Translations under genes and position numbers: made by a program
Assembly (NCBI GenBank): GCA_003024785.1
Contig: PUQB01000148.1
Location: 124,001 to 188,000, forward strand
Length of the DNA: 64,000 bases
Source: Selaginella tamariscina
Taxonomy: Eukaryota; Streptophyta; Lycopodiopsida; Selaginellales; Selaginellaceae
Direction: 5' to 3'
Notes under the pieces: generated by a model
What the model was told of the DNA's origin: nothing
The model's input: only the letters and a program-made list of their open reading frames with translations
Databases searched by the model: none
Part shown: one piece after another, positions 11,098 through 42,167 of the stretch
How the letters are laid out: each line of letters opens with the position of its first letter
How positions within the stretch are numbered: the stretch's first letter is position 1

Positions 11098-11135
<38 letters not shown>

Positions 11136-11481: not shown

Positions 11482-12769
11482 CCCTATCTAATATCCTTTT
11501 ATACCCTAATCCAGTTTAGGTATATATCAAGATTTAAATACGATTTATATACAGCCACCAAGCCCTAATATGATCCCAATGAGTGAGTTACTCATTGTAT
11601 AGATTATACAGCATTTTATTATTGAAAAATTATAATTAATATTTAAGAATAAGGTTTTATTATTATAAAAATTAGGTACTCTCGATTCCGTAGCTTTCCA
11701 ATCTTTTCTTTAATCTCCTCCGTTGACATTTCATATCAAATATTTTGAATCATCACATTTCAAACTAACCCTAGAAAAGCCCTAGGTATTTTAATAAGTC
11801 AGGTATTATCGTCTTAAACTTTTGGAACTGAGACGGTTATTTTCTCATTTACTTATAATTGTTAACTATTAAGAACATACTACTTGTTGTATTGTGTGTG
11901 CATATATACATATGTATGTATTTCAACAATTTATTTTAGATGAGAATGAAAGAGCAATTAAAAATTTGAACGAAGTGTGGAAGTGATTTTTAAAGCTTAA
12001 TAATCTGAATTAAATTAGATTACCATCTTCAAAATGAAGAGTTTATAGTAATTTGTATAATAAGTTTTTATTTAGAAAACTTAATAAAGATAAGATGCAT
12101 TTATATGTAAAAATATTGTGTGCTTGAGAGGAGTTTGAACGAACAGCGTGGATAAGACATGTCTAACAGAATGTATTACAGATGTCCGAATTTTATAAGT
12201 CGAAAGTTTAATGTTTTATATATTCTAAATTTGAAATAAGAAAATGAAGTAAAACTTAATTATATATGGTCTTTATATATGGATGGTCCACAAGAAATCC
12301 AAAAGCTGTAAGTTTTAAGGGAGTATCCAAACTGACCAGTTAAATTATACCACACGATCATTAAATATTATTTTTATAAAATTAATTTATAAGATGAGGT
12401 CATATAAAATATATTTAAATAATAAACAAATTTTACCCTATAAATAACCTTATGAAATGTATACACTTGATCAACTTGTTCATTCTTCATGCTAAGAATA
12501 TAGTCAATGAAGGCATACACACATCATGCTTGTGCCTACGAAACGAACTGATCAACCAATCGATTCTCACGTTTTCCAAAGTTTCTGGAACCGCAAAATA
12601 AACAGAGTTTAAGATCAAGTCAAGAATGAACCCCCAGTTTAATTATAATATATACACACTGTTTGAATACGTAATAAATGGTAAACTACACATCACCACC
12701 ATTTTACACACCAACTGCAGAACGAGTGCGTATAAAAAAACAGAGTCTACTCGTCTTCTTCTGTATAGA
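11482..12769. promoter_or_regulatory. Divergent intergenic region between phosphoesterase and receptor kinase
   Basis: The two genes point away from each other, so this 1.3-kb AT-rich stretch should hold both promoters. The last 120 bases before the kinase start are conserved in the duplicate at about 27600-27723 (shared tracts ATAAATGGTAAACTA and ACAGAGTCTACTCGTC), which marks them as the proximal promoter and leader. No specific operator recognised. Confidence 0.45.
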
Positions 12770-15700
12770 ATGAAAATGGGTAGTTCTTTTATAAAACACA
12801 CATACACCTTACTTCTTATCACACTCTTATTGTACAAGGCTGCAAGTAGCGATGTGGCTGCTTTGATATCAATAAAGAGCGCTCTCGACAAGGAGTCTTC
12901 TGAGATTCTCCACACATGGAACGCATCCGACACTTCACCATGTCACTGGACAGGTATCAGATGCAAGCCTCACACTTACAAGGTACAAGCTTTAAATCTC
13001 ACTGGGATGAACGTCTCTGGAACGCTCTCCCTTCGATAGGAAGCCTCACCGACTTGGTTACGGTGGACCTCTCTTTCAATTCTCTCGGTGGATCAATCCC
13101 GGAACAGCTTGGAAACTTAATCAACCTGGATTACCTCGACTTGAGTGAGAACTTGCTCACAGGAAACATCCCGGCGTCCATCTTCGCCTTGAAGAACCTC
13201 CGTCTGTTGTATCTGATCACAAACACCTTGTCCGGTGAGCTCACATCAGTATGGAAGCAGCCGATGCCTAAGCTTACCGGCTTCTGGATACACGCAAACT
13301 CCTTAACCGGGGAGATACCACCGGCTCTCTTCCAGAGCCGCAACCTCACCTCTGTTTGGCTCAGCGAGAACAAGTTCACCGGAGAAATACTGGATTTTGG
13401 TGCACTCGAGAATCTCCAAGAGATTTATCTGTACAAGAATAGGCTCCATGGGAGCATTCCTCTCGGAGGTAAGTGCTCCAAGTCACTCGTAACTATAGAC
13501 GTGTCAGATAACTCTCTGTCCGGAAATATCCCCAGGGAGATTTCAGACTGCTCGGCTCTCCAGTATTTGATTCTGCACACAAATAGTTTCTCCGGAAACA
13601 TTCCCACCTCGCTGTTCTCCCTGGAGAGTCTGAAACAGCTGGATCTCTCGCACAACCAGTTGACAGGGGGAATACCACCTGAGTTTGCAAACTTGAAGAG
13701 TCTTACTTTCCTCAGCCTCTCATTCAATAACTTGACTGGGAGAATCCCAAAGGAGATGGGGAAGATCAACACTCTTCAGTATCTCTGGATGCAAAGGAAC
13801 AATCTGACTGGAGAGGTTCCGCCAGAGCTGGGGAATATCAGCAACATTCTTGACTTGAGACTCTCAAACAACAGACTTACAGGATTAATACCAGGCGAAC
13901 TCAGCCGTCTCACACACATGGAGCTTCTCTTCCTCGATAACAACAATCTACATGGTGAAATCCCTTCCGACTTAGGGAGTCGTAGTAACTTGAAAGGAGT
14001 CGAGTTTAGTCAAAACCGGTTAGCAGGAAGGATTCCTGCTAAAACTCTATGCACCTCAGGAAATCTTAGATTGCTCAATATTGCAAACAACCGTCTTGAG
14101 GGTGGCCTGCACGAAGTCGCAAAATACTGCACCAAAGTTCAACGCATGAGGCTGGAGAACAACCTTCTCAATGGGACCATCCCCAAGGAGTTTGGAAGTA
14201 ACAAAGGATTGTACTTTGTAACGTTGTTCTCGAATCAACTCGAGGGTAACATACCTCCGGAGCTCGGATCGGCACACAACTTGAGCAACATTGATATCTC
14301 CAACAACCAGATAACTGGAGCAATCCCTGCCGAGCTTGGCCTTCTCCAGAAGCTTGTCACTTTGGATGCCTCTTCAAATATGCTCAATGGCAGTTTACCA
14401 ACCAGCCTCGCTAAGCTACAAAATTTGATTCTCCTCGACTTGAGTGGGAACAGTCTCCAAGGAAAACTTCCAAAGGAGCTCTCTAACCTGTCTTCACTCA
14501 ACAATCTCAAGCTTGAGAGTAACCATTTCACTGGAACAATCCCAGAACAGATCTTCTTGGGTATGAACAAACTCATAGAGTTCAGTCTCGCTGACAACGA
14601 GTTCACCGGTCCTATACCACGCTCCATTGGGCAGCTCAGTGACTTGAGCATCTCCCTCAACCTCAGCCACAACTATCTTACAGGCTCGATCCCAGCAGAA
14701 CTCAGCTCCTTGAACAAGCTGCAGGTCCTCGACTTATCCCACAACAAGCTCTCCGGAAGCATTCCGAACAGCTTCAAGGACATGGCTTCACTCCTCTCTG
14801 CCAACCTCTCGTACAACAACCTCACGGGGGAGTTACCAGATGGTCCATGGAGACTGCTACCGGACAGCTCGTTTGTAGAAAATCCCAACTTGTGCACATC
14901 CACTTGCAACACGACGTCAAAGCAGTACCTGGGAAACTCAGTGCAGGATTATTGTAGCAATTGCGGTCGGAGCTTCTGCAGCCGTCTTTGTTCTAGCTCT
15001 CTCGTGTTGTTCTTGTTACTTGGCAGGAAACAAAGGCGGATTCGACGTGCTGGCTCGATCAAGCTGTTTGGATCGCTCGAAGAACAGTCTCGTTGCGGGA
15101 GATCACCGAGGCTATCTCAGGTAGTCCGAGGAGAATGTGATTGGAAAAGGAGCACATTGTGGTTTACCGTTGAAAACCACTTCTGGGCATGAATTTGCGG
15201 TGAAAAAGCTGATGCATGCCAGTAAAGAGGACGAGACTTACCGGAGTTTCGAGCGTGAATTACGACCGCAGGGACGTTCCGTCACAGGAATCTTGTCAAG
15301 CTGATCGCTTACAAGTCTGGTGAAGAATACAGCAATATGTGTACGACTTCATGCCAAATGGAGTCTTGCAAATGCCTTGTACAAGGATGGGGAAGAGCTT
15401 GTGTGGGAAGCAAGGTGCAGGATTGCACTAGGAGCTGCTAGAGGACTCGAGTATCTCCACCATGGCTGTGTACCTCTTGTCATCCACCGGGATATAAAGC
15501 CTAGCAATATCTTGCTTGACGCAGACATGGAGGCGAAGCTCACCGATTTCGGTATTGCCAAGCTTGTTCAGCAAACTGTGGAGACCCAGAGTGCTTCTGT
15601 CATCGCTGGAAGTCTAGGATACATAGCTCCAGGTAAAAATTCTGTGCGCGTGCGTATGTGTGTGTGAGAGAGAGAGTACTAGAACTCACAAACTAGCTGG

Positions 15701-17700: not shown

Positions 17701-18003
17701 GGCCCACTTTTCACTAGGGTTATTTGGCCCGTAATAAATTAAAATAATGCCACATCATTAATTATTATTACCACTTTTCCATTAGTGGTTAATTGAATTA
17801 AAAAATAAACTAGTAATGCATAATTTTTATTTAACTAGTTATTATAAAGAGGGTTTATATATATATATATATATATATTGTACATACATATGTAATAAAT
17901 GTGCACCTAATCATTATTTTTAATTAAAAAAATATATTAAATCTCTAACTTTTCATTTTATTTTCTTATATAGAATCATTAATTATAGTTTACTAGTGTC
18001 TCT

Positions 18004-22668: not shown

Positions 22669-22874
22669 TGAAAAAGCAGATATATTAAATGAAATGTCAG
22701 ATGTATTAGTTTACAAAAACCCTACTTATATACAGGAGACCTCCTGCCACATGGCACACATGCGACACGTGGCGCTGACACATGGGGGCCAGATCACCAC
22801 CCATGTGTCACTACGCATGTGTGTATATACACATGCGTATATACGGTATGTTACCTAATATACAGTATCTTACA
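22669..22874 (-). repeat. 3' LTR of the Ty3/gypsy element
   Basis: Direct repeat of 27384-27586. On the minus strand a purine-rich tract (GAGGGGAGGATAG) lies directly before it. Confidence 0.9.
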
Positions 22875-25800
22875 CTATCCTCCCCTCTGCGGCTGTGTAG
22901 ATGGTGATGGATCTGATGGTCCTGGATCCGTGTGAGCTGGGCCATCTAAGGTATGACCAAATGTACTCAACGAGTCTCGAACGACAAACCGTTTCATTCG
23001 AACCACGTGAACTATCTCAACCTCATGAGATCCCACCAACTGTACTTGATATACCTGAGGACCAACCTTTCGGAGTACTCGGTAGGGACCAAGCCACTTA
23101 TGTAATAAACCAGTTGCAAGCCCAGGTGCAGTCAGCTTGGGAAAACGTACCAGGACTAAGTCACCGTCAGCAAAATCTGGTGGAATTTGATGTCGTGCAT
23201 TGTAAGAAGATTGCTGCCGCATTTGAGCTCGACCAAGATGTTCAGCAGACTCTGCACGCAGAAGAGGCAAAACAGCATCCAAATGTCGAGCCCACATCTT
23301 TGCATCCTCGGCACGTGGCAGATTCGATGATAACCCCAATTCACTAGGCAACTTAGGATCATATCCATACAATGCCTTGAATGGAGAGATACCAATCGAA
23401 CTCTGAATGCCTGTTACATAAGCAAATCTCAAACATCGCAAATACCAATCCCAGTCCGTGTGATTGAAGTTCACATACTTCGAGATCATACCCTTGAAGG
23501 TCCGATTCAATCGCTCCACCAAACCATCAGTTTGTGGATGATACGGAGAGGCAAATGAATGTTTTACCCCTAACCTCTCACACAACACTCGGATACCTCT
23601 GCAATGAAAGCGGGGCCATTGTCTGATAACATCCGCTCTGGACAAGAATGCTGCAAAACCACATTATCGAACAAAACAAAGCTGTTGACATGGCAGTTGC
23701 ATCGGAAGAGCACCAACCTCCACCCATCGAGTTAAATAATCGGATACAACAATGATGTACTGGTTACCTTGAGAAGAACGTGGAAAAGGTCCCATTAAAT
23801 CCACTGCAATTAACTCAAAAGGGCGAGAGACATTGATGGATTCCAACACCCCATGGCCCGAGTCGTAGAGGAATTCCGAGTTTGACAAGTGGGAAGCTTT
23901 GAATATACCTGATCACATCACCACGCATGCTGGGCCAATAAAAATGATCGGCACAGCTTCTCCAACACCCGTTGGTGACCAAGATGACCTCCAACATAGG
24001 TGAATCATGATATGCTCGAAGAAGGTGTGGAACATATGTAGAGGGTACAGCCAAACGCCATCTGTCCTCTGGATTTGTCCCAATAAAATACAATAAACCA
24101 TCCTGAAGTCGAAACTGAGCATGATATTGTCGAAACCGAGGTTCGGAAGACGGATTTGCAAACGCATCGCGTAATTGCCTCGTCCATGGTTCATGTTTTT
24201 GAGCATCCTGCCACTGTTCCAAGGATGGTAAGTCGGCATCGAATACCTGAGGGGCTTGTATCAAACCGAACGCTGCAGCTACTGCATGAGCAGGCAAAGT
24301 GGAATCGGAGAGGGGTGCTCGAGAAAGTGCATCCGCATCCACCATTGTTCGCCCAGGCCTGTGCACCACCTTAAAGTTATATACCTGGAGACGTAATGCC
24401 CATCTGGCTACGCGACCCACTAAATTTTCCGTTTTAATAAGGAAGTGACAGCAGCATGATCACATCCAAAAGCGTTTCACTCCCATGTAAGTAGGCATGA
24501 AGTCGTTCAAAACCTCAAACCAGCAGCAAGGCATTCTTTTTCAGTAGTGGAATAATTCCGCTCAGCCGGCGTGAGTACTCGACTAATGTAAGCCACCGGG
24601 TGTCGAATTGAAGAATCCACAGCATCAGTTTGCATCAATACACCACCAATACCAACATCTGAGGCATCTACTCGTAAAATGAACGGACGAGTAAAATCTG
24701 GGTATTGAAGCAATGGTGGAGTTGTCAGGAACTCTTTTAACTGGTCAAATGCCTGCTGACACCTGCGAGTCCACCTGAAAGATACCTGTGGATGAACTAA
24801 CTCCCGAAGAGGGGCAGTTCGATCAGTGAGATGATCGATGAATCGACCCAAGTACTGCACCTTGCCCAAGAAACGCTGGACTTCCTGTACTGTACGGGGA
24901 CGAGGGAACTCTCGAACAGCTCGCAACTTCATTGGATCCACCTGTAAACCCTCTCGAGATATACGGTAACCCAAGTAAGTGGTGTCGGTCGAACCAAACA
25001 CACACTTTTCAAGTTTCAACTTCAGGCCAACTTCTCGAAATCGATCAAGAACGCGCCGTACATCACGAATGTGATCCTCCCAAGAACCAGACCCATGAAT
25101 GAGCACATCGTCGATAAAATCGGCAGTGATATCAGGCATATCGGAAAGAAGCTCATCCATCATGCGTTGAAAGGTGGCAGGAGCTGAAGTCAATCCAAAA
25201 GGCATACCAAAAACTCGTAAAGACCAAATGGTGTCCGGAAGGCCGTTTTTGGAATATCCTCCTCAGCCATAGGAACCTGCCAATATCCTGATGCCAAATC
25301 CAACTTAGTAAACCATCGACTCTGACCCAAACGATCTAATAGATCGGCAGAGTTCGGAAGTGGATAGACATCTTTGATGGTAACATCGTTAAGAGGTCGG
25401 TAATCCACACAAAATCGTAGAGATCCATCAGGCTTGGGAACCAAATGAGGTTCACATGCCCATGGACTCCGTGATGGACGACACACCGCTTACCATCATA
25501 TCAGTAACAGCTGTTCGCATGGCTGATAACTCTTTTGGTGACCTGCGTCGAACCGGGACTTTGAAAGGCTTTGCATTGCCTGGGTATACAGTGTCGAGTC
25601 TTCACACGTGCACCTTGGGACAGATCAAATTTGAACAAACTTGCATACTGCTTAAGTTGTTCGATGCATTGTGCTCGATACTCAGGTGACGGATCCGACA
25701 TTTGAACCTGTTGAGATGAACACCACCCAAGACCGGAATCAAAGGAGCTGTATGTGTGATACAAACAGCAACAAGCTTCTCTGGACGTAAAGGAACAGAC

Positions 25801-27383
25801 TGCAGAGACACAGACTCCAAGCGTAATACAGGAGGAGAGAGTGAAAAATCACACATACCTTTCGACTGCTTCAACCAATCACATCCCAGAATAATGTCAA
25901 AGACCTGGGAAGGGACAACCCTAAGAGACCCAGAGGGAAACTTACGATTGTCACCCAAAACTAGCGTAGTCGAAGTGGTGTACTGTGATACTGCACGAGA
26001 CTGCCCATTACCATATAAAATGTGCAAGACCTTATCTGCACGTCTTAAGGGTAATGAGCACCGATGCGCTAGAGAAGAGTTATGGAAGACATACTGGATC
26101 CTGTATCCACAAGCACTGTGACTGAAAGATCATTCACTCGTGCAGAAAATGTGAAAACTGGATGATCTGGTGGAACTTGCAAACCCTTGATATGCATAGC
26201 GGAAAAAAGCATGGAGGTGAAGTCTCCATCGCACGGGATCCCTCCGTCGCCCGTACGATTACTGGTTTTCCGCAACAGATCCACTGCAAGAGAGGCTTCG
26301 TCATCTGGAAGCTCATCATCAGACATAATGGCCGCACAGGCACACCATCCGGAACATATGGTCGCCAGCCTGGATGTGGTGGACGCCAATCAGGATACAC
26401 ATCGCATGCCCGCCAAGTATGTCCAGGCCCAACAGGCCCAACAATGAACTTGATTGGGTCGACCTGCATTGTTCCGATTCCTCCTGTCACGAATCCGTGG
26501 ATTTTGACCACCACGGGCAGGTACTGGAGCAGGTGCAGGACGATTTCGTGGAGGTGGTCCACGGGGTGGGCCCCGAGGTCGACCACGAAAGGCTTGCCGT
26601 GCGGGCACATATGCAGCAGCATCAACCTCCATTGGATCAGCACGCTGAACAAGAGGAGCAGGTAACCCAAGGGGAACACGGCCCTCACCAGGCACCAACT
26701 CAAAACGTTGAGCTAGTGCAAAAGCTTCCTCCAATGTGGTAGGACGAAGAGCCCGAACGAATCGAACAAGTTCGGGTCGCATAGTTGGCCATAACATACC
26801 GAGCTTAATAGGCTCAGGCATGTTAGGATATGCACGCCGAACTAAATCCCCGAACCTAATACTGAACCGCATAACAGACTCACCAGGATGTTGTCGTATC
26901 GCATGCAGTTGTTGGAAAGCATCATCTGAATCCTCAACTTTGCCAAACGTACGTTTGAGGCATTCCGTTAACCGATTACTATTGGCTTGAATCTCCGCAG
27001 CCAATCCATTATACCACTTGAGCGCAGGGCCTTCCAAACATGTAGGGAATTCTCTGAGAGCACGGGCCTCATCCCAACCATGGTAACGAACAATGACTTG
27101 GAAATGATCAAACCAGTGGTATACATCATCTCCCGGATCACCACAAAAAGATCGGGGTCGAACCCTCGGATTTGTGGCCTGTGAAGATGAAGGAGTACTA
27201 GAAGCAGATCCCCCATGAGGCTCAGACGGGGAAGAGGAGGACGAACCCTCAACAAAGCGCTCCAACAACTTAGTTTGTGCATCAATAGCAGTAGCAATAA
27301 TGCTAAAAGCCGTCTCCATGTTCATTGTCATGGAAACAAGAAAAAGAAAAGGGGAAGAAAGGAATACCCAACTTCTCCACCAA

Positions 27384-27586
27384 TGAAAGAGCAGATATAT
27401 TAAATGAAATGTCAGATATTAGTTTACAAAAACCCTGCTTATATACAGGAGACTCCTGCCATGTGGCACACATGCGACACGTGGCGCTGACACATGGGGG
27501 CCAGATCACCACCCATGTGTCACTACGCATGTGTGTATATACACATGCATATATACGGTATGTTACCTAATATACAGTATCTTACA
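27384..27586 (-). repeat. 5' LTR of the Ty3/gypsy element
   Basis: Direct repeat of 22669-22874. The internal region begins TTGGTGGAGAAGTTGGG on the minus strand, the position of the primer-binding site, but I cannot assign the tRNA. Confidence 0.88.
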
Positions 27587-27723
27587 ATATAGCTCGTTTT
27601 CCAAATTGTGTCAAAAGTTTAAGATTGAATAAATGGTAAACTAAACATCACCACCGCAGAACGAGAACAGAGTCTACTCGTCTCCTCTATGTCAAAGAAA
27701 CACTCCATTCTGTACAGAACGAG

Positions 27724-29208
27724 ATGGGTAGTTCTTTTATAAAGCACACATACATCTTACTTCTTATCACACTCTTATTGTACGAGTGTGTCTGCTTTGC
27801 TACAAGGAGTCTTCTGAGATTCTCCACACATGTCACTGGACAGGTATCAGATGCAAGCCTCACACTTACAAGGTACAGGCTTTAAATCTCACTGGGATGA
27901 GCACCTCTGGTACGCTCTCCCCTTCGATAGGAAGCCTCACCGACCTGGTTACGGTCTCTATCAACTCTCTCTCCGTGGAGCAATCCCGGAACAGCTTCGA
28001 AACCTAACCAACCTGGATTACCTCGAATTGAGTGAGAACTTGCTCACAGAAAACATCCCGGCGTCCATCTTCGCCTTGAAGAACCTCCGTCTGCTGTATC
28101 TGATCACAAACACCTTGTCCGGTGAGCTCAGAGGCAGCCGATGCCTAAGCTTACCGGCTTCTGGGTGCAAACTCCTTCACCGAAGAGATACCACCGGCTC
28201 TCTTCCAAGTTCCAGAGCTCTGTTGGGCTCAGCGAGAACAAGTTCACCGGAGAACTACCAGATTTTGTGCAATCGAGAACCTTCAAGAGATCTATCTGTA
28301 CAAGAAGCCTGCTCCATGGGAGCATTCCTCTCCGAGGTATGTGCTCCAAGTTACTCGTATGTCGTAACTATAGACGTATCGGAAAACTCGCTGTCGAAGA
28401 TATCCCCAGAGAGATTTCAAACTGCTCGGCTCTCCAGTATTTGATTCTGCACACAAATAGTTTCTCCGGAAACATTCCCACCTCGCTGTTCTCACTGGAG
28501 AGTCTGGAAGATCTGGATCTGTCGCATAACGAGTTGACAGGGGGAATACCGCCTGAGTTTGCAAACTTGAAGAGTCTTACTTACCTCAGCCTCCCATTCA
28601 ATGATTCAATAATTTGATTGGGAGAATCCCAAAGGAGATCGAGATGGGGAAGATCAACACTCTTCAGTATCTCTTGATGCAAAGGAACAATCTGAGTGGA
28701 GAGGTTCTGCCAGATCTGGGGAATATCAGCAACATTCTCGACTTGAGACTCTCAAACAACAGACTTGACCGGAGTCGAGTTTAGCCAAAACCGGTTAGCA
28801 GGAAGGATTCTCGCTAAAACACTGTGCACCTCAGGAAAGCTTAGCTTGCTCAATATTGCAAACAACCGTCTTGAGAGTGGCCTGCACGAAGTCGCAAAAT
28901 ACTGCACCAAAGTTCAACGCATGAGGCTGGAAAACAACCTTTTCAATGGGACCATCCCCATGGAGTTTGGAAGTAACAAAGGATTGTACTTTGTAACGTT
29001 GTCTTCGAATCAACTACAGGGATACATACCTCTGGAGCTCGGATCCGCACGCAACAACATTGATATCTCTGACAACCAGATAACTGGAGCAATCCCTGCC
29101 GAACTTGGCCTTCTCCAGAAGCTTGTCACTTTGGATGCCTCTTCAAACATGCTCAATGGCAGTTTAACCAGCCTCGCTAAAGTTACAGTTTTAAAGTTAC
29201 AGTTTTAA
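27724..29208 (+). pseudogene. Truncated duplicate of the LRR receptor kinase (ectodomain only)
   Basis: Close copy of 12776-14415, including the proximal promoter (27600-27723), the start ATG at 27724, the signal peptide and most of the LRRs up to NGSLTSLAK. Transmembrane segment and kinase are missing: similarity stops at about 29180, where a short tandem (AGTTACAGTTTTAA twice) marks the join. It has several frame breaks and small deletions (for example one LRR block missing near 28770). At 27919-27922 it keeps CCCC where the longer copy has CCC. It is not expected to make a receptor; a short secreted LRR peptide is conceivable but unsupported. Confidence 0.85.
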
Positions 29209-29445
29209 ATTTTTTCCCTGGAATTTATTTAGTACGGTGTTGAAATTATCACAATTATGGAGCATGTAGATTTGGACAAGTAAGAATTCGAATGGAAGTT
29301 AGTACTTACATCATTTCCAACTTGTGCTTATCTCTCGTCTGTATATATATAATATATATATATATTTGTTAGAGAGAGAGAATCAAGTGAGGGACGAACA
29401 TTAAATGAAAATGACATTAATGCATCGTGTTCTATGATGTTTTGC

Positions 29446-30335
29446 AGAACTTTGGGCCTAATGCAGTCAAGGATCAAATCACAGCGTAAGTTGACTGTGT
29501 GTGTACGCATGTGTATATATTTATGAATAAACACTGTTTTATTTTACAGGCTTAGAGAGTTCGATGTGGGATTTAATAGAATAGATCGTCCACAGTTTAC
29601 GCTTAGTGTGGTTGGTTCAAGGCCATTTTCACTTGGTGGTAGCGAGTTTATGTTTGGCAAAGAGCACCTTTCCGACTAAACACTTCCTTACTTGTAACTT
29701 CGAGACCAGTGCAAAAAGAATCACCGAGCTTGCACTTGGGGCTCCTAAAGGACACTCTGTGATCCTCCTCAGCCACAATGGCCCAACCGGTATGTACATA
29801 AGTTGTGTGTGTTTGAGAGAGAGAGAGAGAGAGAATATTACTCGGTTATAGGGTAAGATTTTGCTGTTGGAGCTGGTGACGAGGTAAATAACTTTTCCTT
29901 TTGCAGCTCTTTCTTTCTCTCTCTCTCTCACCCACACCACACACACACACGTGCAGAGAGGCTCATTCTTTGATATGTAGACCTGGGAGAGGCACTTCAG
30001 TCATGTGAGGGAAAACGGGAGATACAATTGGTAGAGTGTTTGGCCACATGCACACCAGACTGGCTGGAGAGAAAAAACTGCAGTTAGGATGAAGGGCTGT
30101 TTTCCTCAATGCATCTATTGTGCCGCGTGTCTATGAAGGAATCAGACAGTTTATGGTGGTTGAGATGGTGGACAACAACGTTAACAAAATCACTGAGAAA
30201 TGGTTGAAGGTATATGAGAATGAGTAGATTGGTAGCTATATAGATACTGTGTATGAAGAAGTTTTGCATAGCAGAAAAGTGACTACTGTAGAGGAAGAGT
30301 TAGAAGACGATCCCTTCTTATTTATTCGAATTTGA
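29446..30335 (+). pseudogene. Truncated duplicate of the metallophosphoesterase (exons 6-10)
   Basis: Copy of the 3' half of the gene at 9668-11481. It starts inside the old intron 5 (from about 29395), then exon 6 shortened (29446-29486), exon 7 (about 29550-29680), exon 8 (29700-29789, SAKRITELALGAP, GHNGPTG), part of exon 9 (29850-29885) and exon 10 (about 29980-30335, FGHMHT, ending EELEDDPFLFI). Stop TGA at 30333-30335. The N-terminal metal motifs GDxH and GNHD are absent, so it cannot be active. The downstream flank to about 31100 is shared with the first copy. It lies 240 bases after the truncated receptor kinase, in the opposite relative orientation to the intact pair. Confidence 0.85.
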
Positions 30336-32584
30336 ATTTCCCGGCTTTTTTTTGACTTCATATTCCATAGTCTTTTGGAAATATACATATTGAAGGTACA
30401 CACAATGTAGGTTCTTATGATGATGGTATACACTATCATGGTCAGTGGTTTTATTTGTGTTAACAAATGGAGGCCACTTTTCACTTGTTTGATGATGCGA
30501 TAGTGGTTCTTATTGTCTGCCATTTTTCTGGAAGTATATGATAATACATAATTAAGGTATATGCTTAATAACTGTGTTAATAATGTCACTTTTCACTATG
30601 TAACTTCGTTTGGAAGTACATCCTTAAGGTATATTATGGGGCCAGTGGGATACATAATGCCATTTACCTTTTAATAATTCTCAATAATATAAATAATAAT
30701 AATAGTAAGAAAGTTTATGCGATAAGTGGCCAAGTAATATGACAACATGGGGCACTCTTTATAATATATTTACTTGTAATATTTTTCATTGTTCTATATT
30801 TAAGTCAATTGGCATATAATTAATAACAAAACTTTTAAATAAATGATTGTGAATACTTAAAGATTTGCGAACAGTTTTAACCCATGTAATCTCTAACTAT
30901 TTTAACATTTCAACTAGTGATGCTTTCTAAATCTAAGTTAACTCTTTTATTTATATTTAATCTAAAATGCTATAAATGTGGTAAATTGCATGCTTTTTAC
31001 CTGTATAAAGCGAAGGACAGTATATGAGTATCGTCATCTGCATATTATATAATAATAAGGGTTATGATTTAACTTAAATGGAAAATTTAAATAAACAATA
31101 CTTCTTTGTATTTCAGGTATATAAACTGCAAAGTTGTGTTATATAAAATCCTATTCGATAGTTGAAAATAACTAATTTTGAACTTCGACGGCATTTAATT
31201 TAAAATGTAATAAGCAAGATTCTTATTTATAAATATTATTATCAAACTTCAATAAAAAATATATTTTTAATAAATTAAATATTAAAGTCAAAACATAAAA
31301 TTTCATTTTTAGCAAAATAATTCAAATGAAACAAAGTTTATTTAAAATACTTCATATAATATTTTTAAAATACATATATTTAATTTTAATTGAAATAAAT
31401 AAAAAGAATTTATATATATATACACACACATAAATTGAAATGAAATAAAGCAAAGGTTAATAAATATCATAGATTTTTATTATGTGTGATTTGCATGTTC
31501 AATTAGTTTTATTTTGGCGTTAAAAAATATGGATTATAAGATAATTATAAATTTTTTTGTATTTCTAAAATAAAATCTAAGTTTTAATCATGAAGTGCAT
31601 GGAGATATATAAATTACATATATATACTCTTTGAAATCTATAGTATTTACATAAAATAATGTATATAGAGCGTGTGATATATAGCAAAAGTATGTGTATG
31701 TAAACAATTATTATAGATAAATTCAAATGGATATTTTACCATGTAAATGCTACTAAATCTCATGTACCAAGCAACCGGGAGAGCTAATCTGCGCGCTGCG
31801 CAATGACGCGAACGTATAGCCACTGTACGGACGTGATGACGTAACAGTACGGTCCATGACGTCTGCATGCAGCCTCGGCGCCAAGGATGACCTTACTTAC
31901 AAAGAAAGAGAATATCTGAAACAGCTTCCTAGGAGAACATGATGTAAACCTTGTACTCCATGAGTTCAGGGTGGTGAACGAAAATGTTCTTAGCATCCAT
32001 TATCAAAACATTACACGTGACGTAGTACATGTGCATGTACGGGGATATATCCAATTCTAGGAAATGTTGCAGAAGAAATAAACATCTAGTGGCAATTGTG
32101 CATCTACCATCTTTTTTGATATGTAATATAAAACAATTGCTCTATAAAACAACACGTTCGTTAATAACCACCCTAAGAAAAATGACTTTTCATGCTCTTT
32201 TCAATGGCTTTATTTGCGTTCGAACTTGACACCCTTCTATGTTTATAAGAACATTCTGGGATATAGGGTGGGCCTTGCAGTAGGTTCGGACATAGGTGTA
32301 TATGTATTAGATTGACTTTAAAAATGGAAATTGAATTTTGCTTTTGTGAGGGCTTCAATTTCCTAGTTTGTCATATTTATTTCAATGGCAACCGAAGATG
32401 GATCACGAATACTCTTTAACACTTCAAAAACAATAAAATCAATCGTGTAGAAATACAAAATGTTTCTTGCAAAATATAATTCAATCATTGCAATGATTTA
32501 AATAAAATGTTAAACATGTTAGTACTTACAATTACTTAGTCCTCAGTGTTGAGGATGCCACACTAACAACAAAAATCAAAGTAA
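30336..32584. other. Duplicated flank, AT-rich spacer and a GC-richer island
   Basis: 30336-31100 matches the flanks of the other phosphoesterase copies. 31100-31780 is AT-rich with nothing recognised. 31780-32000 is distinctly less AT-rich: it has three TGACG motifs (31804, 31837, 31857), a palindromic element at 31873-31889, and on the minus strand an exon-like open stretch (DAKNIFVHHPELMEYKVYIM, about 31998-31937) from an unidentified gene. A palindromic element lies at 32541-32557, just before the MITE. Confidence 0.4.
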
Positions 32585-32900
32585 GGCCCACTTTTCGATT
32601 ATTTGACCAGTGATAAATTAAAATAATGCCATGTCATTAATTATTATTATCACTGTGTTTTTTCATTAAAGTGGTTAATTAAATTAAAAAATAAACTAGT
32701 AGTGCACAATTTTTATTTAACCGGTTATTATAAAGAGGGTTTTTACATATATATTACACATACATATGTAATAAATGTGCACCTACTCAATATTTTTAAT
32801 TAAAAAATATATTAAAACTCTAATTTTTCATTGTTATTTTCTTATATAGAATCATTAATTATAATTTACTAGTGTCTCTCTTTATATATATATATATATA

Positions 32901-32937
<37 letters not shown>

Positions 32938-33242
32938 TACACAGAAACATATGAGTGTGTTAAGAGAGAGATCTTTTCATTAATTTTTTTTTAAATCTAA
33001 AAAAAGCAAAACCTAATTTATTAATCTTGATACACATGTCATTCAATTATGCCCGATAACCATATAATCCGTTGGCTATCACCAAAAAGCCATGTAGGTG
33101 CCACATAGGTGCTACGTAGGTGTCATGTAGATTATAAATTATAAATAATTAGCAAATGGAAAACTAAACTCATAGTAAAATAAATAATTTTTTTATTTTG
33201 ATTGGTTGAGACAATTAACCACTTGTTAGTGGAAAGTGGGCC
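32585..33242. mobile_element. Tourist-like (PIF/Harbinger) MITE, copy B, both ends present
   Basis: 658 bases bounded by terminal inverted repeats (GGCCCACTTTTC at the left, reverse complement GGCCCACTTTCC at the right) and by TAA on both sides (32582-32584 and 33243-33245), the 3-bp target duplication of PIF/Harbinger elements. It is AT-rich, non-coding and contains a TA microsatellite near 32884-32937. Similar to copy A at 17701-18660. Confidence 0.75.
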
Positions 33243-33245
33243 TAA

Positions 33246-35782
33246 TTTAAAATCATTTTACTTGGGCAAGTTTGGACTAGTTGAGTGACTTTTTTATATG
33301 CATTGATTTGAACATCACCAAAGAATCGTTTTGGAGTCCTGAAGGACAAACTAAAAAATAACATTTCTTTCAAGAATTAAAGTTAATTTCCTAACACCTT
33401 GCTGTATTGTCGTATAGCCTAGTCTTTGTCATATATCAGTTCTTTCTTTATAATTTTCCATTGTACCGTGTCAACATTGTCAAAATTCAATTTTGAAGAT
33501 GTTACAATTTTCTTGCTAGTCCTAGACCTCCTAGACATTGTGCAATTGTTAAGATCAAAGTTAGTGATGTAGAAGATTCCTAATTATGTTTATTTCTTTG
33601 GGCATATAATAATGAAAAACACAAAAAAAGAGTATATATTGTGGAAAAAAACGAGAGTCGGATGGAAATATAGAAGTATGAGATTACTACCATATTACGC
33701 TTAGTCGACTATCGCAATACGATGTTTGAGGTGGAGTACGGCACTTCAGGATAAGGATAAGGAGTTACGATAGATGAAAAGATAAAGTTATGAAATGATA
33801 AGAATAAGGAGTTACGATAAATGAAAAGATAAAGTTAGAAGGAAGTTATGATAATTATTAGTACGGGACCAAAAGTACGAGTATAAATAGACCAGATTAG
33901 GACTAGAAAAGGATCCCGAGTATACTGTTTATTGTACTATATATTGTTTGTGAATATAATATAAGTTTCATTCTACTCTCAATACGTTTTTTCTTGCTCA
34001 TCTTTCTGCTTTGATGTATACTATTCTTTTTCTCATCACTGCAATGGGATCCGCAATACTTTTACCTACTATATACCTTGTCATCCTTACCATTTTCCCA
34101 ACCTTTTGAAGTCTGATTTGTACTCTATATCTTTTTATCTTATTTCGATATATCCTTAATATGGGTTGTCTGTGGCGACCATTGCTACAAACTATGCCTA
34201 CTCCGATGATGTTTTCTCACCGTCCACCATGCAAGCCATGTGTGGAGTTTACATATGTCTTTACTCAATCTCTATTGTTCCTCTGGGTTTTCAATATGTA
34301 CTAATTTTTGGCATAATGAATCATGTTCTTTTGGAATTATATATTTATTTGTTGCTGATGACTATTTGTGTATAGTAAAAACTACAACCATGTTCTTGCA
34401 CAACATCGTGACCAAAGACTTTTTTTACAACATTTCATTTGGTAACAGCTTCATCACCCATGAAACCATGAATTTGTGGTTTTCATCTCACATATTGCAA
34501 TTGTCTCTCCCCCATTGACTTATTTAAACACTACCATTGAAATCCCTCAAGTGTGAATCATGGCTCCTAGTCCACGTTATTTGCTCTCTACATCCCCAAA
34601 AATGGATCCTTCATCAGTCTAGGGACTGATGACAATTCAAAAACCATATTACCATTGTATGCTTGTGAGACTTTCGTACACATGACTCATTGGCTTTCAT
34701 CAACAAATTCCTTGCATGACTCGAGGAATGCATTAACAAATCATACAAGGACACTGATGTACCAAATGCCAGTGATTCTATGCCGGTGACTTGTTTATAA
34801 TTAATATCCTTGATAGGTTGCTTCCCTAAACACAAAGAACAAGTTTACATAGGCTTATTTAGTCAAAAGTAAGTTACCTTGAAAGATACATGTTCTTGTT
34901 GCCATAAGTCTATCATTTTTGGAAAACCTTCAAAGAATCACTAGATGAACTGTCAAGAACATGAATGCAAGGTGTTTCTTGCACATATATAATGACATCC
35001 TTTTCCAAATCGAAGTCAATGTTGAAAGTTCCTTTGTCACTTAAAATTTCTTTTGTTAGTCCATCAAGACCTGTTAGAATTTGATACAACGTAACTGTCT
35101 TTCTTTGTGGATATTTCAAAATTTGCATGAAGAACATATTGTGATAAGTAAATGATGTTGTTACATTCACATTGATAGCTCCTTGTTACACTTCTATAAG
35201 AAACAACAAAGGAATCCATTAGAAACAGTGATAAAAATTGAATAATGGGTTATGAGAATGAAGATAGCCTTTAATCTTTGAAATGGAAATGAAATTTTGA
35301 TTTACTAATTTTCAAATTTAGACAATAAAATGTGTGTTTGTATTCTTAATAAGCTGCAAGAAGTTTAAAATCATTTTTGTGGACTATTGAATGCTTATAA
35401 TTAAGAAGATTATGCTATATATAATTCACAAGAATTATATGAAAGATTCATTGCCATGCCTACAAACTATACAAAAATTGGTTAACTAGCAAGTGAAGAG
35501 AATATTCTGAAAGGACTTCACAAGTATTCTTAACAAACTTGATAGGTATATTCTAAAAAGACTTCATTTGGAAGGTTGAGAAGAATATTCCTACTCATTT
35601 TCAAAAAATACTATCATGTGCCTCACATGCAATAAGCCATGTTGGATTGACACATATAAATATGAGTGTGCTGAAGTTGTTTATCATTGTTTAGGTTTTG
35701 GTTGTAGGATTCTGTTGATGTGTTGGCAGAGTTATTTCACGATTAGCATAAAAGAAACCAAGTACAATGTTCGCTTACATAT
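33246..35782. other. Gene-poor region with a 47-bp tandem duplication
   Basis: Contains a tandem pair (33751-33790 and 33798-33837; 40-base blocks at period 47) just upstream of a TATAAATAG box (33884-33892), a promoter-like arrangement. Short open stretches at 34166-34518 and, on the minus strand, 34613-35170 match nothing I recognise. Confidence 0.4.
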
Positions 35783-37211
35783 GCATCCTCAACACTGAGG
35801 AAGGTTTACTTTCTTTTCCTTTTGGCATTCAAGGTTGTACATCTTTTTCACATTCCGGACTCATTCTCAGCACCAAAGATGGGCACAATGCTTTCTCCTG
35901 GTGAGTATTTAATCCCTTTATCTAGTTCAATGATAGTCATCACACTGATCGGTGGAATGATTCCTATATATGGAGAAAGCTATGATCATCCTTGGCACCA
36001 AGGTTGGTGATGAGGATGATCATCTTTCGATGTACATTAAAATCTACTTTTGAGTAGATTCCCCATCCCTGGCACCAAGGAAGATCATTGACTTTCTCCT
36101 CCGGATGATAACCCCCTTGTTTTCCCCACCCCCTTATGAATACATTGGTCATCCTTAGTGTTGAGGATGATGATTGTCTTCTAGTGTAAACTATTTGATC
36201 CCCTTTTTGAAGTGTATTAGCCAGAGGACAATATTGGTGTAGACATTGCACTAAATCTTCCCCCAAGTACGATATAACCATCCTCGGCATTGAGGATGGC
36301 TATATTGTATTTGAGGGAAGGTTTAGTACAATCTCCATTATTGAATGGACATCCTCGATACCAAGGATGTACATTATTATCTGTGAAATTAAACTAGCAA
36401 ATTACTCTTTACCATCATTTCATAATCCTCGGTCCTAAGGATGCTAAATAATTTCTTTAATATGTCCAATTTATGTGTATAGAACTCATCTTCGACACCG
36501 AGGATGTTACTTTTAAATCATCTTCCACAAGAGTAGATTTATATTAAACCATTACACTACAAATTTGCATTTTTTTAGTTCTTGTACACATGTTTAGAAT
36601 CTATTATGTATCCAAACCATATTACTATACAATTTTAAATGTTCTCTTCACATTCAATAGGTATCTACAATAGTAAAGAGAATGTCTAAGATTGTTATTT
36701 CGCTCAACTTTATCGGCTCTTGTCTAGCTGAAGAAGAATCCATAAGTTTCAACACTCTTAACTAAGTTTGCAAGAACACTGGCATCATAGTTGATAAATA
36801 AAATGCAGAAAAAGGGTTGTGACAAGATCACTCATTTAAACCCTAATGACAACGAACATGCAAGTGAACAATGCTCCCATAAACCAATTATCTTGATGCA
36901 TGTTTGTAATTGCTTTTGCCTCAGCCTGCATTGAGATGGGCTATCACAATGATTATATGCTCTACACTAGTGCATCAAATATGGAAACTATGAATATTGC
37001 ATCAAGAGGCTTTTTGAAGAAAATGGGAGGACTGTGCAAGCAAAAATTAATAATGGTGTCGAAGTTGTTAAGTCCTTACTGAAGGCAACCCACATGATCA
37101 TATGTTTAGGGTAAGTCATGTATTTTTTATTACATTGAAAAGGTTATCATAATTTATATCCACATTTGTTCTCGATGCTGAGGATATTAATTGTCCTCAA
37201 TGTTAAGGAAG
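35783..37211. repeat. Array of about eleven 20-bp near-perfect palindromes
   Basis: A recurring element, consensus CATCCTCGGCACCGAGGATG, occurs at 35783-35802, 35861-35880, 35988-36006, 36064-36081, 36150-36169, 36279-36298, 36350-36369, 36424-36443, 36487-36506, 37169-37187 and 37193-37211. Between 35861 and 36487 the spacing is 63-129 bases. Further single copies are at 31873 and 32541. Arms pair (CATCCTCGG/CCGAGGATG) around a 0-2 base centre. The spacer sequences are not repeats of one another, and the elements fall in all three frames, so it is neither a simple tandem repeat nor a repeated peptide. It may be a cluster of protein-binding sites, such as transposon subterminal repeats. Confidence 0.7.
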
Positions 37212-38978
37212 ACTTTTATATTTACTTGGTTTTGTTTCTCTGGCAACATAAGGAGAAGGAGAAGATTGAGTGGGCTAGGAGGAAAGTAAATGCAAGTGTA
37301 TCTATGATAAATAAGATCAAGCACAATATGTACAACCATTGGACAACGATAATGGGGAAGTATTTCTTCATAATAAATGACAAGTTGAATAACCCTTAAT
37401 TTCTAGAGAAAGTCATTATATTTTAGTAGTCGGAGGCAGGGAACTGGAATCTTGAGCTCGAGAAGTGGATTGTCCTTGCTTGGCTGTCGTCGATGGACAT
37501 CGACCAAGGACAAGATGCCATGTTCGACACTTCAAAAAATTACAACTATACAAAAATCAAACTTGAAACTATGGGTAATGAAATGGATGTAGTTTCAAGT
37601 AATTGAAGAATGCTTGACAGTCTACCATGCTTTGACGATCAGTATGGAGGGAATAATGGAAAACGTAACCCTTCGATTTAAGGAGTTTCTTGATAAGATA
37701 CCTTAGAAGTCACCAAGAGTCTTCATTGTATTGAAAAAGGATAGAAGAACTTTTTAGATATCACATCGACTCAATTGCATGTCATATGCTATTGAGGTAA
37801 GAACATTGGTTATAATTTATGCTAAGCATGACTTAAATTGCATGAATATTAATGAAAAATGAATCACTCTCATGGGTTTACAATCATCTTTATTAAAATA
37901 AAAGAAATAGTGGCTTGTATAGAAAAAGCCAATAGAATATAATTATAAATATAATAAAGAATTTTATTATTTATTATACAAAAAGTTAATTAATAGATTG
38001 ATGATTTATGTTTTATAATAGGATAAAAAAACCTTTATTATAACAAATGATTCATGTCTTATAATGAAATCAGTGAAACCTTAGATTTCTAAGGTTTATG
38101 TTTAATTGAGATTTTTAGTTCAAATTTGTTTAAATTATTAAAATGTAATTAAGAAAACATATCAAGATTAATTTAAAAAAATTAATTTAAATTATAATTG
38201 AAAGATTCTTTATAAATATTAGTTTTCAAGTCAAATATATGTAGTTATTTTATATTATTAAACATAGAAAGAAGAGTGAATTCTTAACTATTAATGAATG
38301 AAATGAATTGAGTAACAATTAAAAATTAATTATTATTAAATCTTATAAATAAACATAAATTACAATAAAAGTTTCAACATGCTTCAAATATTAATATATA
38401 TTATTAAAATTCTTAATTTATTAAAAGAGCTGTATAAAATATTTAAACATTTGTTTTCAATTATAACTAATAATATTAGTAATACATAAGTTTATATCTG
38501 AAAATCCTAAGATTTTGAATTTATGATTATGTTTTATTATCTTGTAACAAATATTATTAAATAACATTTATAATTTGATTATTCAATAGGATTTTCTTAA
38601 CTATATATATATAGGATTTTTTTCAACAATATTACGTATGTATTATTTTACATCTTTTCCATGCTTTTTATAACATAAAATAAATGAGAACAAAAATATA
38701 AAAATTAGTTAAGGCTACTGTAATCAATTATACTTTTAAGTTTAAGATTATGCCAGCTTAAGTATATCCAATTTAACATCAAATTGATAAATGCGATTGC
38801 TTTATGTGATTTTTAAATGTGTTTATGTTATTAAACTTATAAAAAATCATATATAAATTAAAATACTTTAATTATAGTTACTGTATTAGAAATACTAAAT
38901 ATTTTTTTATTAAGATTGTTTTTTTTAATTATGTTGTCTATGTTAAATTTCATAACAATTCTAATATGAAAAAAGACT

Positions 38979-39011
<33 letters not shown>

Positions 39012-39159
39012 TTAAGAGAATTAATAAATCAATTATAAACCTCTTTAATATATTTTTGTTTATGAATAAATTAATTTTTTATTTTAATTTTTTTATCAAC
39101 TACTGAAAACATTTTATTAATTAGATTTTAATTAAGCAGGTTGTAATTTAATACAATAG

Positions 39160-39215
<56 letters not shown>

Positions 39216-40885
39216 TGCACTAAAAAATTAAACAAAATAAAATATAATATAATGTAAAAAAGATAAAGAAAATTAATCTTAACTTACAATGAAGCAATCT
39301 TAAACCTTTTGGTACATTCATAGAAGATTATAATTATATTACACACACACACACATAAATAATGTTTTAACATGTTATTACCTACACCTTTTTATATTAT
39401 GATTATTTAAATAATGGTTTTGCTGCTTTATTTTTCACCTTTTCCTTTTTTGCGTTTTGTGATTTTATAATGTTTTCATAGTTACCGGCATACGTTGCAT
39501 ACGTCTTATGCATACGTGATAAATGTGTATGCATAATAATGATAAACTAGTCCTATGCATCATACGTGAATAGAAGACATCCATCACGCCCGCACCAACT
39601 TATTAAATTTTCTGAAAGTTTTCTTAGGCTTCTTAATCATGGACCCTATTCATACGTGTTTGCATGTGTATAAAAATTGTGTCATACCCATACTATAGTA
39701 ATTGTGAATGTTATAATCAATAAATAATACTTTATATAAAATGGATGTAATAAAGAAGTGTGTGTATATATAATTGCTGTCAAGTTATCTTGATAAAGAC
39801 TAAGTAGTAGTGGCTATTTAATAAATTTTATTAATTAAATTAAAATTTTAATAATTTTTTAATGATTATGATATTATTCTATTACTATTGGTTTATGAAC
39901 AATAATAATGAAAGATTTTATTATATACGGTGAGTAAACTTACTATAAGAGAGCATTTTAATTCATAATGAGATAAAACTCTTCACTTTACCAAAGGAAA
40001 ATCAATATTCAATCATTATTTAAAAGTTAAATTATATTCATGTTTTAATTGAAAATTATATAGTATCACAGTAAAGATGGACCTTGTCTTATATGGAAGT
40101 CACCTCCAAAACTAACGTTGGCAATGTTTTCATTTATAATATTTAAAAAGCTTAAAATTTAATTATATTTTAATTTTAATATTTTTAATTAATTAATTAT
40201 TCAATATTAGTTAAGGATAACAACATAATTAAAGGTTGTTAAATTAAATCCAGGATAAACTGGATTTAACTTAAGATAATAATTAAGTTAAGAGTCATTA
40301 AATAATTAAGAAGCTTAATAATAAATTCATCGGGTTAAGCATAATAATTTGTTACATATTTAATTTATGAATAAATTCATTAAATTAAGATAAATTATTA
40401 TTAAATAACTAAGACATATTTACTAGTAAATGATAAGTTTATTTAATAACATGAATAAAAGAATATTAAAATTAAAATAGATTAGGCATGTGGCGCTTCT
40501 TCTTACTATTAAAGAAGATATTTTACTTATGAATTATTACTCATTTTAAAAAGCACCCTCCATTTGCTAACACCATAATATACCTTAATGATGTACATCC
40601 AAACGAACTTACATAATATATCCCATCCATTTGCTAGCACAATTATTAACACAATTATAAAGCATATACTTTCATTATGTACTATCATATACTTCCAAAA
40701 ACATGGCAGACATTAAAAACCACTGGTCCTTGATAATATATACCCTAATTATGAAACTGGCCCCTCCGTTTGTTAACACCGATTAAAACCACTGACCCAT
40801 CATAAAAACTTACATTATGTGTGTGTAAAAGACTTACACGGGTATGGAATTGAAGAAAGACACGTCAAGAAAAAAACCGGGAAAT
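37212..40885. other. AT-rich spacer
   Basis: 37260-37400 has an open stretch rich in Lys/Ile (EKIEWARRKVNASVSMINK) that may be the end of a decayed gene or transposase but is not identified. 37800-40400 is very AT-rich with TA/CA microsatellites (39165-39211). From about 40555 the sequence is the flank of the third phosphoesterase copy, with three variants of a CCATTTGCTAACACC phrase. Confidence 0.45.
39165..39211. repeat. (TA)n(CA)n microsatellite
   Basis: TA repeat of about 18 units running into a short CA repeat in AT-rich spacer. Confidence 0.85.
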
Positions 40886-41210
40886 TCAAATTCGAATAAA
40901 TAAGAAGGGATCGTCTTCTAACTCTTCCTCTACAGTAGTCTCTTTTCTGCTATGCAAAACTTCTTCATACACAGTATCTATATAGCTACCAATTTGCTCA
41001 ATAACATACACCCTGAACCATTTCTCAGCGATTTTGTTAACGTTACCACCATAAACTGTCTGATTCCTTCATAGACACGCGGCACAATAGCTGCATTCAG
41101 AAAAACAGTCCCCTCATCATTAACTGCAGTCTTTTTTTCCCCAGCCAGCAATTGTATCTCCCGGTTTCGCTCACATGACTTCTCCCAGGTCTACATATCA
41201 AAGAATGAGC

Positions 41211-41265
<55 letters not shown>

Positions 41266-41850
41266 GGGAAAAAATAAGTTTAGTTCTAAATATGTACCTG
41301 ATCCCCGTAGTCATCAGATCCAGCAGAAAAATCTTTTCCCACGGAGCCCAACCCTGTAACCAAGTAATATTATCGACATCTGGGATAAGCATAAATATTC
41401 GCACCCTCTCTCTCACACACCCATGCGTACACACACAACTTATGTATACACCGGTTGGGCCATTGTGGTGGAAGAAGATCAGAGAGTGTCCTTCAGAAGC
41501 CCCAAGTGCAAGTTCAGTAATTGTATTTACATTGCTCTCAATCTATTAGCGGTTAAAACATCTTTCAGTATGTGTGTTGTAAATTTAATAACTTACAATT
41601 CGGAGAGGTGCACTTTCTCAACGATACTCACTACCACCGAGTGAAAATGGCCTTGAACGAACCACACTAAGCTTGAACTGTGGATAATGTGTTCTATTAA
41701 ACCCCACATCGAACTCTCTAAGCCTGTAACATAAAGCAGTGGTTTTTCTCTTTCTCCATATATACACATATGTTAAATAATACTACCGCGAGGAAAGCGT
41801 TCTATCGGCCCAAGAATCCCAAGCTCCAGGCTGAGAAATCAAAGAGATAA
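40886..41850 (-). pseudogene. Third, decayed copy of the metallophosphoesterase
   Basis: Exon remnants can be laid against the first copy: exon 10 in two pieces (40886-41195, with the FGHMHN metal segment deleted), exon 9 (about 41298-41360), exon 8 (about 41452-41520), exon 7 (about 41597-41725) and exon 3 (41786-41831, GAWDSWADRT). Exons 4-6, which encode the TGDFGNED and GNHD motifs, are missing. At 41110-41113 and 41500-41503 it has CCCC where the first copy has CCC. It lies next to sucrose transporter A in the same orientation. Confidence 0.8.
41212..41262. repeat. (TG)n(AG)n microsatellite
   Basis: Expanded version of the intron microsatellite at 10047-10080, showing that the tract was inherited with the duplicated intron and grew. 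Confidence 0.9.
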
Positions 41851-42167
41851 ATACTTCGGCCATTTCACATGGCGTGCTTCGTACACAACAATGTTTAATA
41901 TATGTATAACTTATAATATGGAACAATTCGGACAACTGTGTAAGATTCTGCAGAAAAATGCACATGCATATGCTTATTAAATTACATGTATTTAATAACC
42001 TAAAGGTTTATACCCATCTCTATACGTCAAGTCATTTAATTTAAATGTTGTTGGTGTGTGGTTGAGGCTATAAGTCTCTCAGCAAATATATAGAAGAAGA
42101 TTGAAGTACATAACTTCCATTTATATTTAAATAGAGGTTGAGAAATATTATACAGTTATATAGATAC

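What the first reader, a model, noticed from the sequence alone, without database searches (positions are those of the whole stretch)
31873..37211. Irregular array of 20-bp near-perfect palindromes
One element, consensus CATCCTCGGCACCGAGGATG, appears at least eleven times between 35783 and 37211, with outliers at 31873 and 32541. Centre bases and arms vary in a compensating way in several copies (CTTAGTGTTGAGG, CTCGGCATTGAGG, CTCGATACCAAGG). Spacers of about 45-110 bases are unrelated to each other and the copies lie in all three frames. That fits repeated binding sites or hairpins, such as the subterminal transposase-binding repeats of CACTA-type elements, or a short palindromic element that spreads on its own. 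I know no named plant family with this unit.
Basis: partly seen in the sequence, partly recalled or inferred. Interest (0 to 1): 0.7.

Follow-up and report, generated by a model that had tools for sequence, protein, structure and literature searches.

The report
Decayed palindrome array in plant DNA
About a dozen worn copies of a 20-base palindrome sit close together in plant DNA, most likely old protein-binding sites from the edge of a dead jumping gene, which is a known sort of feature.

Summary
The array is real. I count thirteen copies of a 20-bp palindrome (CATCCTYRRYRYYRAGGATG) at 31870-37211, nine of them in 723 bp (35784-36506). Twelve match with at most 3 mismatches; 0.125 were expected in simulated 64-kb sequence. 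Spacers are unrelated, with one exception, and copies fall in all three frames. The "compensating" changes are not supported: 87 of 130 arm pairs are Watson-Crick, against 86.9 when arms are permuted among copies. Variation is mainly transitions at CpG (35 of 78 sites, against 16 of 104 other C/G sites), as expected of methylated DNA under no constraint. One copy (36279) is the centre of a 94-bp palindrome with 44-nt arms, 84% complementary.

Best reading: the decayed subterminal region of a DNA transposon, working like CACTA (En/Spm) subterminal repeats. The layout, 2 on one side and 11 on the other, resembles the 2 + 12 stem-loops of soybean Tgmt*. Membership is not shown: no CACTA ends with target duplication and no transposase domain were found. 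The genome-wide search did not complete (14 tries). Probably ordinary; I found no name for the motif.

The parts
31870..31889 (.). palindrome copy 1 (left outlier, in a CpG-rich patch)
   Evidence: 1 mismatch to the degenerate motif; CpG o/e 1.20 in the 500-bp bin 31501-32000
32538..32557 (.). palindrome copy 2 (left outlier)
   Evidence: 2 mismatches
35784..35803 (.). palindrome copy 3, start of dense cluster
   Evidence: 1 mismatch
35862..35881 (.). palindrome copy 4
   Evidence: 2 mismatches
35987..36006 (.). palindrome copy 5, with an extra half-site word at 36012-36018; arms 35982-36001 / 36004-36023 pair at 85%
   Evidence: 1 mismatch
36064..36083 (.). palindrome copy 6
   Evidence: 2 mismatches
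36150..36169 (.). palindrome copy 7
   Evidence: 0 mismatches to the degenerate motif
36279..36298 (.). palindrome copy 8, centre of the long palindrome
   Evidence: 0 mismatches to the degenerate motif
36242..36335 (.). 94-bp imperfect palindrome, 44-nt arms with 6 nt between them, 84% complementary, centred on copy 8
   Evidence: z -7.1 for 36200-36370; 7 differences between arms, 6 of them transitions
36350..36369 (.). palindrome copy 9
   Evidence: 0 mismatches to the degenerate motif
36424..36443 (.). palindrome copy 10
   Evidence: 2 mismatches
36487..36506 (.). palindrome copy 11, end of dense cluster
   Evidence: 1 mismatch
37167..37186 (.). palindrome copy 12 (weakest)
   Evidence: 4 mismatches
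37192..37211 (.). palindrome copy 13
   Evidence: 3 mismatches

Best explanation
The array is the decayed subterminal region of a plant DNA (class II) transposon, working like the subterminal repeats of CACTA (En/Spm) elements. Each 20-mer would be a symmetric site of two head-to-head half sites (CATCCTCGG) bound by an element-encoded DNA-binding protein of the TNPA kind; many sites near one end and few near the other would bring the ends together for excision. After the element died, cytosine methylation and deamination turned CpGs into TpG or CpA in each arm independently. Shown here: the motif, its clustering, half sites that lie mostly inside palindromes, independent variation of the arms and CpG-biased transitions. 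Inferred: the transposon, the binding protein, its class and the methylation.
For: Dense cluster of near-palindromes with unrelated spacers. Of 16 exact half sites CATCCTYRR in the window (3.5 expected), 12 lie inside the palindrome copies. CpG transitions 35/78 against 16/104 at other C/G sites, Fisher P 2e-5; without the central two columns 22/52 against 16/104, P 4e-4. CpG o/e is 0.21-0.47 in the bins 34001-37500 against 0.67 for the window. Soybean CACTA element Tgmt* has 2 stem-loop palindromes in its left border and 12 within 732 bp of its right end, with a 17-bp motif (section 7 of PMC2613891 read); subterminal units of CACTA elements are 10-20 bp in direct and inverted orientation (PMC8978399 and PMC8195511, passages), and motif sequences differ widely between families (passages).
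Against: No pair of CACTA/TAGTG ends enclosing the dense cluster with at most one mismatch in both words together, 9 of 13 matching TIR bases and a 3-bp duplication was found. A generic search for inverted ends with duplications showed nothing convincing in the top 12 of 172, 50 and 42 candidates. No transposase domain in six frames of 30700-33200 and 33200-38000, nor in four of six frames of 38000-40500. The two left copies are 3.2 kb from the cluster with another small mobile element between, so the 2 + 11 layout may be coincidence. Low CpG is not special to the array: several neighbouring bins are as poor (0.36 at 32501-33000, 0.35 at 30501-31000). The genome-wide test was not possible.
Confidence: 0.6

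Rival explanations
1. Repeated binding sites in the non-coding part of another class of plant DNA transposon: a MULE (including VANDAL-type elements, whose anti-silencing VANC protein binds arrays of a short motif) or a hAT. The array would recruit a regulator rather than the cutting complex.
For: VANC21 sites are short, dense and mainly in non-coding parts of one TE family (PMC5735166, passages). The array here has unrelated spacers and no coding domain.
Against: VANC21 motifs are described as arrayed in the same orientation and as evolving by tandem repeat formation; here the sites are palindromes and no tandem array was reported at them. No MULE or hAT domain.
Confidence: 0.17
2. A short hairpin-forming element that spreads on its own, each copy being a separate insertion.
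For: Palindromic copies with mostly unrelated flanks; the strand folds far better than shuffles (z -8.3 for 35770-36520, 20 shuffles); one copy is the centre of a 94-bp palindrome, which suggests fold-back copying at a hairpin.
Against: The 12 good copies fall within 5.3 kb of a 64-kb window, which a freely spreading element would hardly do. None of 13 copies has an exact flanking duplication of 3-10 bases; one has 2 bases and one a 5-base match with one mismatch. No compensatory change. In the listing (15 of 206 papers shown) I saw organelle palindromes but no such nuclear plant family; one search listed bacterial REP.
Confidence: 0.08
3. An RNA-level function: a transcript with many hairpins, or a small-RNA source.
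For: The dense cluster and the long palindrome fold well (DNA parameters only; RNA parameters were not run).
Against: No excess of compensatory changes; no Rfam family in the window at gathering scores; folding strength follows from palindromes of any origin.
Confidence: 0.05
4. A decayed coding repeat.
For: Some short open frames nearby.
Against: Copies in all three frames with variable spacing, no domain, palindromic symmetry.
Confidence: 0.02

Closest known systems
Subterminal repeats of plant CACTA (En/Spm) elements, in particular soybean Tgmt* and Tgm1
   Same: Many short palindromic stem-loops, few on one side and many within about 0.7 kb on the other (2 and 12 in Tgmt*; 2 and 11, nine of them in 723 bp, here); repeated motif of 17-20 bp in the soybean elements, 20 bp here.
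   Different: Motif sequence differs from the soybean sub-motifs quoted (TTGGCAG, AATCTTACAG); no CACTA ends, duplication or transposase found here; the left pair is 668 bp apart, whereas in Tgmt* the left repeats lie within 159 bp.
VANC-binding motif arrays of VANDAL (MULE) elements of Arabidopsis
   Same: Short motif at high density in non-coding transposon DNA (passages).
   Different: Nine-base motif arrayed in one orientation that evolves by tandem repeats; here 20-bp palindromes without reported tandem units.
REP palindromes of bacteria and organelle palindromic repeats (Volvox)
   Same: Short repeated palindromes (search listings only).
   Different: Bacterial and organelle genomes; here copies cluster in one locus of what looks like nuclear plant DNA.

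Membership tests
CACTA (En/Spm) transposon | Terminal inverted repeats starting CACTA, with 3-bp target duplication | tested here: not met
   No pair with left start 28001-35783 and right end 36507-40999, at most one mismatch in both CACTA words together, 9 of 13 TIR bases and identical 3-bp flanks. More decayed ends, or ends not enclosing the dense cluster, would be missed.
CACTA (En/Spm) transposon | Transposase (TNP2/TnpD type) | tested here: not met
   No transposase family at E up to 1 in six frames of 30700-33200 and 33200-38000 and four of six frames of 38000-40500. Most CACTA elements lack the genes (passage of PMC8195511), so this does not exclude.
[quoted passage not shown]
   13 palindromic 20-mers, nine in 723 bp; definition. 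That the region is subterminal is not shown, since no ends were found.
CACTA (En/Spm) transposon | The same subterminal motif in many copies in the genome, each bounded by the same ends | not testable with these tools
   The genome search did not complete (14 tries, first, last).
MULE/VANDAL element with VANC-type motif array | Motif repeated in one orientation in tandem units | tested here: not met
   Sites are palindromic; Tandem Repeats Finder reports no array over any copy.
Functional RNA hairpin array | Compensatory changes between arms | tested here: not met
   Watson-Crick pairs 87 of 130, permutation mean 86.9.

The most novel reading that the evidence does not exclude
The palindrome is a hairpin-forming unit that copies itself and its flanks by fold-back template switching. 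The 94-bp palindrome centred exactly on copy 8 would be one such event caught in place, and the array would have grown by such events instead of by selection of transposase sites.
Probability: 0.06. Interest if true: 0.6.

Novelty: new member of a known kind. Interest (0 to 1): 0.25.

Why it matters
If it is a subterminal array, the motif marks a plant transposon family for which I found no name and gives a simple tag to find its members. The case also shows that arm changes in old palindromes can look compensatory when both arms merely lose CpGs independently. The 94-bp palindrome centred on a copy may be a natural record of fold-back copying at a hairpin-prone site.

Tried and rejected
Decayed coding repeat: rejected by frames, spacing and symmetry. 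Compensatory hairpins: rejected by permutation. Known RNA families: none in the window at gathering scores. Flanks of all copies as part of a longer unit: rejected except for copy 36279 (same-copy flanks share on average 8.8 of 30 bases without it, flanks of different copies 8.7); among other flank pairs that do not overlap, the best had P 0.001 in 325 pairs (35862 right with 36150 right), which I take as chance. Separate insertions: no exact flanking duplication of 3-10 bases at any of 13 copies. Intact element ends: the first 12 of 172, 50 and 42 candidates of the generic search, which is what was printed, are mainly simple TA/CA sequence, pieces of the long inverted repeat at 30.0-30.6 / 40.6-41.2 kb, and weak pairs such as 35512 / 37076 (12 of 14 bases); no shuffled control was run. 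CACTA words: the one at 32561 points towards the cluster but has copy 2 outside it and no partner; the one at 36555 points away from the dense cluster. Prokaryote genomes and viral contigs for two near copies 40-70 bp apart: none, as expected. Papers: none holds any of six core sequences searched (open-licence PMC only). The ancestor's centre cannot be told: total mismatches to four candidate ancestors are 61 to 64.

Full report
Observation. The window looks like nuclear plant DNA (inference): of 10 frames scanned, Pfam finds a glycosyl hydrolase 17 frame, PPR repeats, an LRR frame with an adjoining kinase frame, two retrotransposon frames and an MFS sugar-transporter frame; three frames had no hit. 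Between 31870 and 37211 lie 13 copies of a 20-bp near-palindrome. Three match CATCCTYRRYRYYRAGGATG exactly, 11 with at most 2 mismatches and 12 with at most 3; a first-order Markov simulation of the window gives 0.02 and 0.125 for the last two (200 runs). At up to 4 mismatches there are 17 positions against 1.69 expected, three of them far outside the array, so the thirteenth copy (37167, 4 mismatches) is accepted only because it lies beside another. Nine copies lie in 723 bp (35784-36506), with starts 63-129 bp apart.

Symmetry and decay. I permuted right-arm letters among copies, column by column: Watson-Crick pairs 87 of 130 against a mean of 86.9; G-T pairs 17 against 17.6; A-C pairs 18 against 17.6; pairs with both sides changed 9 against 9.3 (5000 permutations). 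The arms vary independently as far as 13 copies can show. Against a perfect palindrome with a CG centre, 35 of 78 CpG positions carry transitions, against 7 of 78 CHH, 9 of 26 CHG and 4 of 78 A/T positions; transversions are 8 in all. CpG against other C/G gives Fisher P 2e-5, and 4e-4 without the central two columns, which were chosen to fit. Copies and columns are not independent, so these P values are rough. Four candidate ancestors fit about equally (61-64 mismatches). The surroundings are CpG-poor too (o/e 0.21-0.47 in bins 34001-37500; window 0.67), but so are other bins nearby, so this is not special to the array. Copy 31870 sits in a CpG-rich patch (1.20 in its 500-bp bin) and keeps two of its three CpGs. 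The simplest reading is deamination of methylated cytosines in a once more uniform set; methylation itself was not measured.

Flanks. Same-copy left and right flanks share on average 10.0 of 30 bases, and 8.8 without copy 36279, against 8.7 for flanks of different copies. So the repeat unit is the 20-mer alone. None of the 13 copies has an exact flanking duplication of 3-10 bases; 37167 has 2 bases and 35987 a 5-base match with one mismatch. Copy 36279 is the exception in its flanks: arms 36242-36285 and 36292-36335 are 84% complementary, with 7 differences of which 6 are transitions, and 36200-36370 folds at z -7.1 as single-stranded DNA. This looks like one fold-back duplication centred on a copy, later decayed (inference). 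Exact half sites CATCCTYRR number 16 in the window against 3.5 expected; 12 of the 16 lie inside palindrome copies and the other 4 are about what chance gives, so the half site hardly occurs alone.

What bounds it. Six-frame domain searches of 33200-38000 and 30700-33200, and four of six frames of 38000-40500, gave no transposase; the weak hits (E 0.86 and 0.12) are far under their cut-offs. A search for CACTA ends with 3-bp duplications enclosing the dense cluster found none. A generic search for 14-bp inverted ends with duplications of 2-5 and 7-10 bp gave 172, 50 and 42 candidates for three placements; the 12 printed for each are mainly simple sequence, pieces of a long diverged inverted repeat whose arms are 10 kb apart, and weak pairs; no control was run. 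A separate small element lies at 32585-33242 between copy 2 and the cluster: inverted ends GGCCCACTTT, TAA on both sides, and a relative starting at 17701. The array's own element therefore has no visible ends here.

Mechanism. [quoted passage not shown] Tgmt* of soybean has 2 palindromes in 159 bp on the left and 12 in 732 bp on the right (section 7 read). The array here, 2 and 11, with nine in 723 bp, resembles this closely, though the left pair is 668 bp apart and may not belong. I judge CACTA-like subterminal sites most likely (0.6), another DNA transposon class next (0.17). Since defining features were tested and not met, I do not file it as a CACTA element; in organisation it looks like a worn, probably non-autonomous one.

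What is missing. The decisive test, the motif's distribution in the whole genome, was asked for 14 times and never answered (first, last). No paper in the open-licence library holds any of six core strings of the motif. Paper searches on CACTA subterminal repeats and on short plant palindromes (15 of 206 shown) gave listings in which I saw no family named for this unit; I read passages of PMC8978399, PMC8195511 and PMC5735166, and passages and one section of PMC2613891.

Verdict.

Noticed in passing
32585-33242 and from 17701: A small element with inverted ends GGCCCACTTT and TAA on both sides, and a relative (88% alike over 347 aligned positions) preceded by TTA, right end not found. Looks like a PIF/Harbinger (Tourist-type) element; that label is recalled.
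   Followed up: partly
22669-27590: Retrotransposon with LTR-like repeats at 22669-22878 and 27384-27590 (95.7% identical) and RT, RNase H and integrase domains; Ty3/gypsy is my reading.
   Followed up: no
9433-11244, 29456-30739 (inverted), 40573-41853: A unit of 1.2 kb or more in three diverged copies; the middle one is inverted to the others, and with the third it brackets the array region with a long inverted repeat.
   Followed up: no
12759-15667 and 27708-29187: LRR receptor kinase-like gene and a second, shorter, diverged copy.
   Followed up: no
31780-31890: A stretch with many CpGs and three TGACG words, next to palindrome copy 1, in a region otherwise poor in CpG; could be promoter-like.
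   Followed up: no
36242-36335: 94-bp imperfect palindrome centred on one array copy, perhaps a fold-back duplication.
   Followed up: partly
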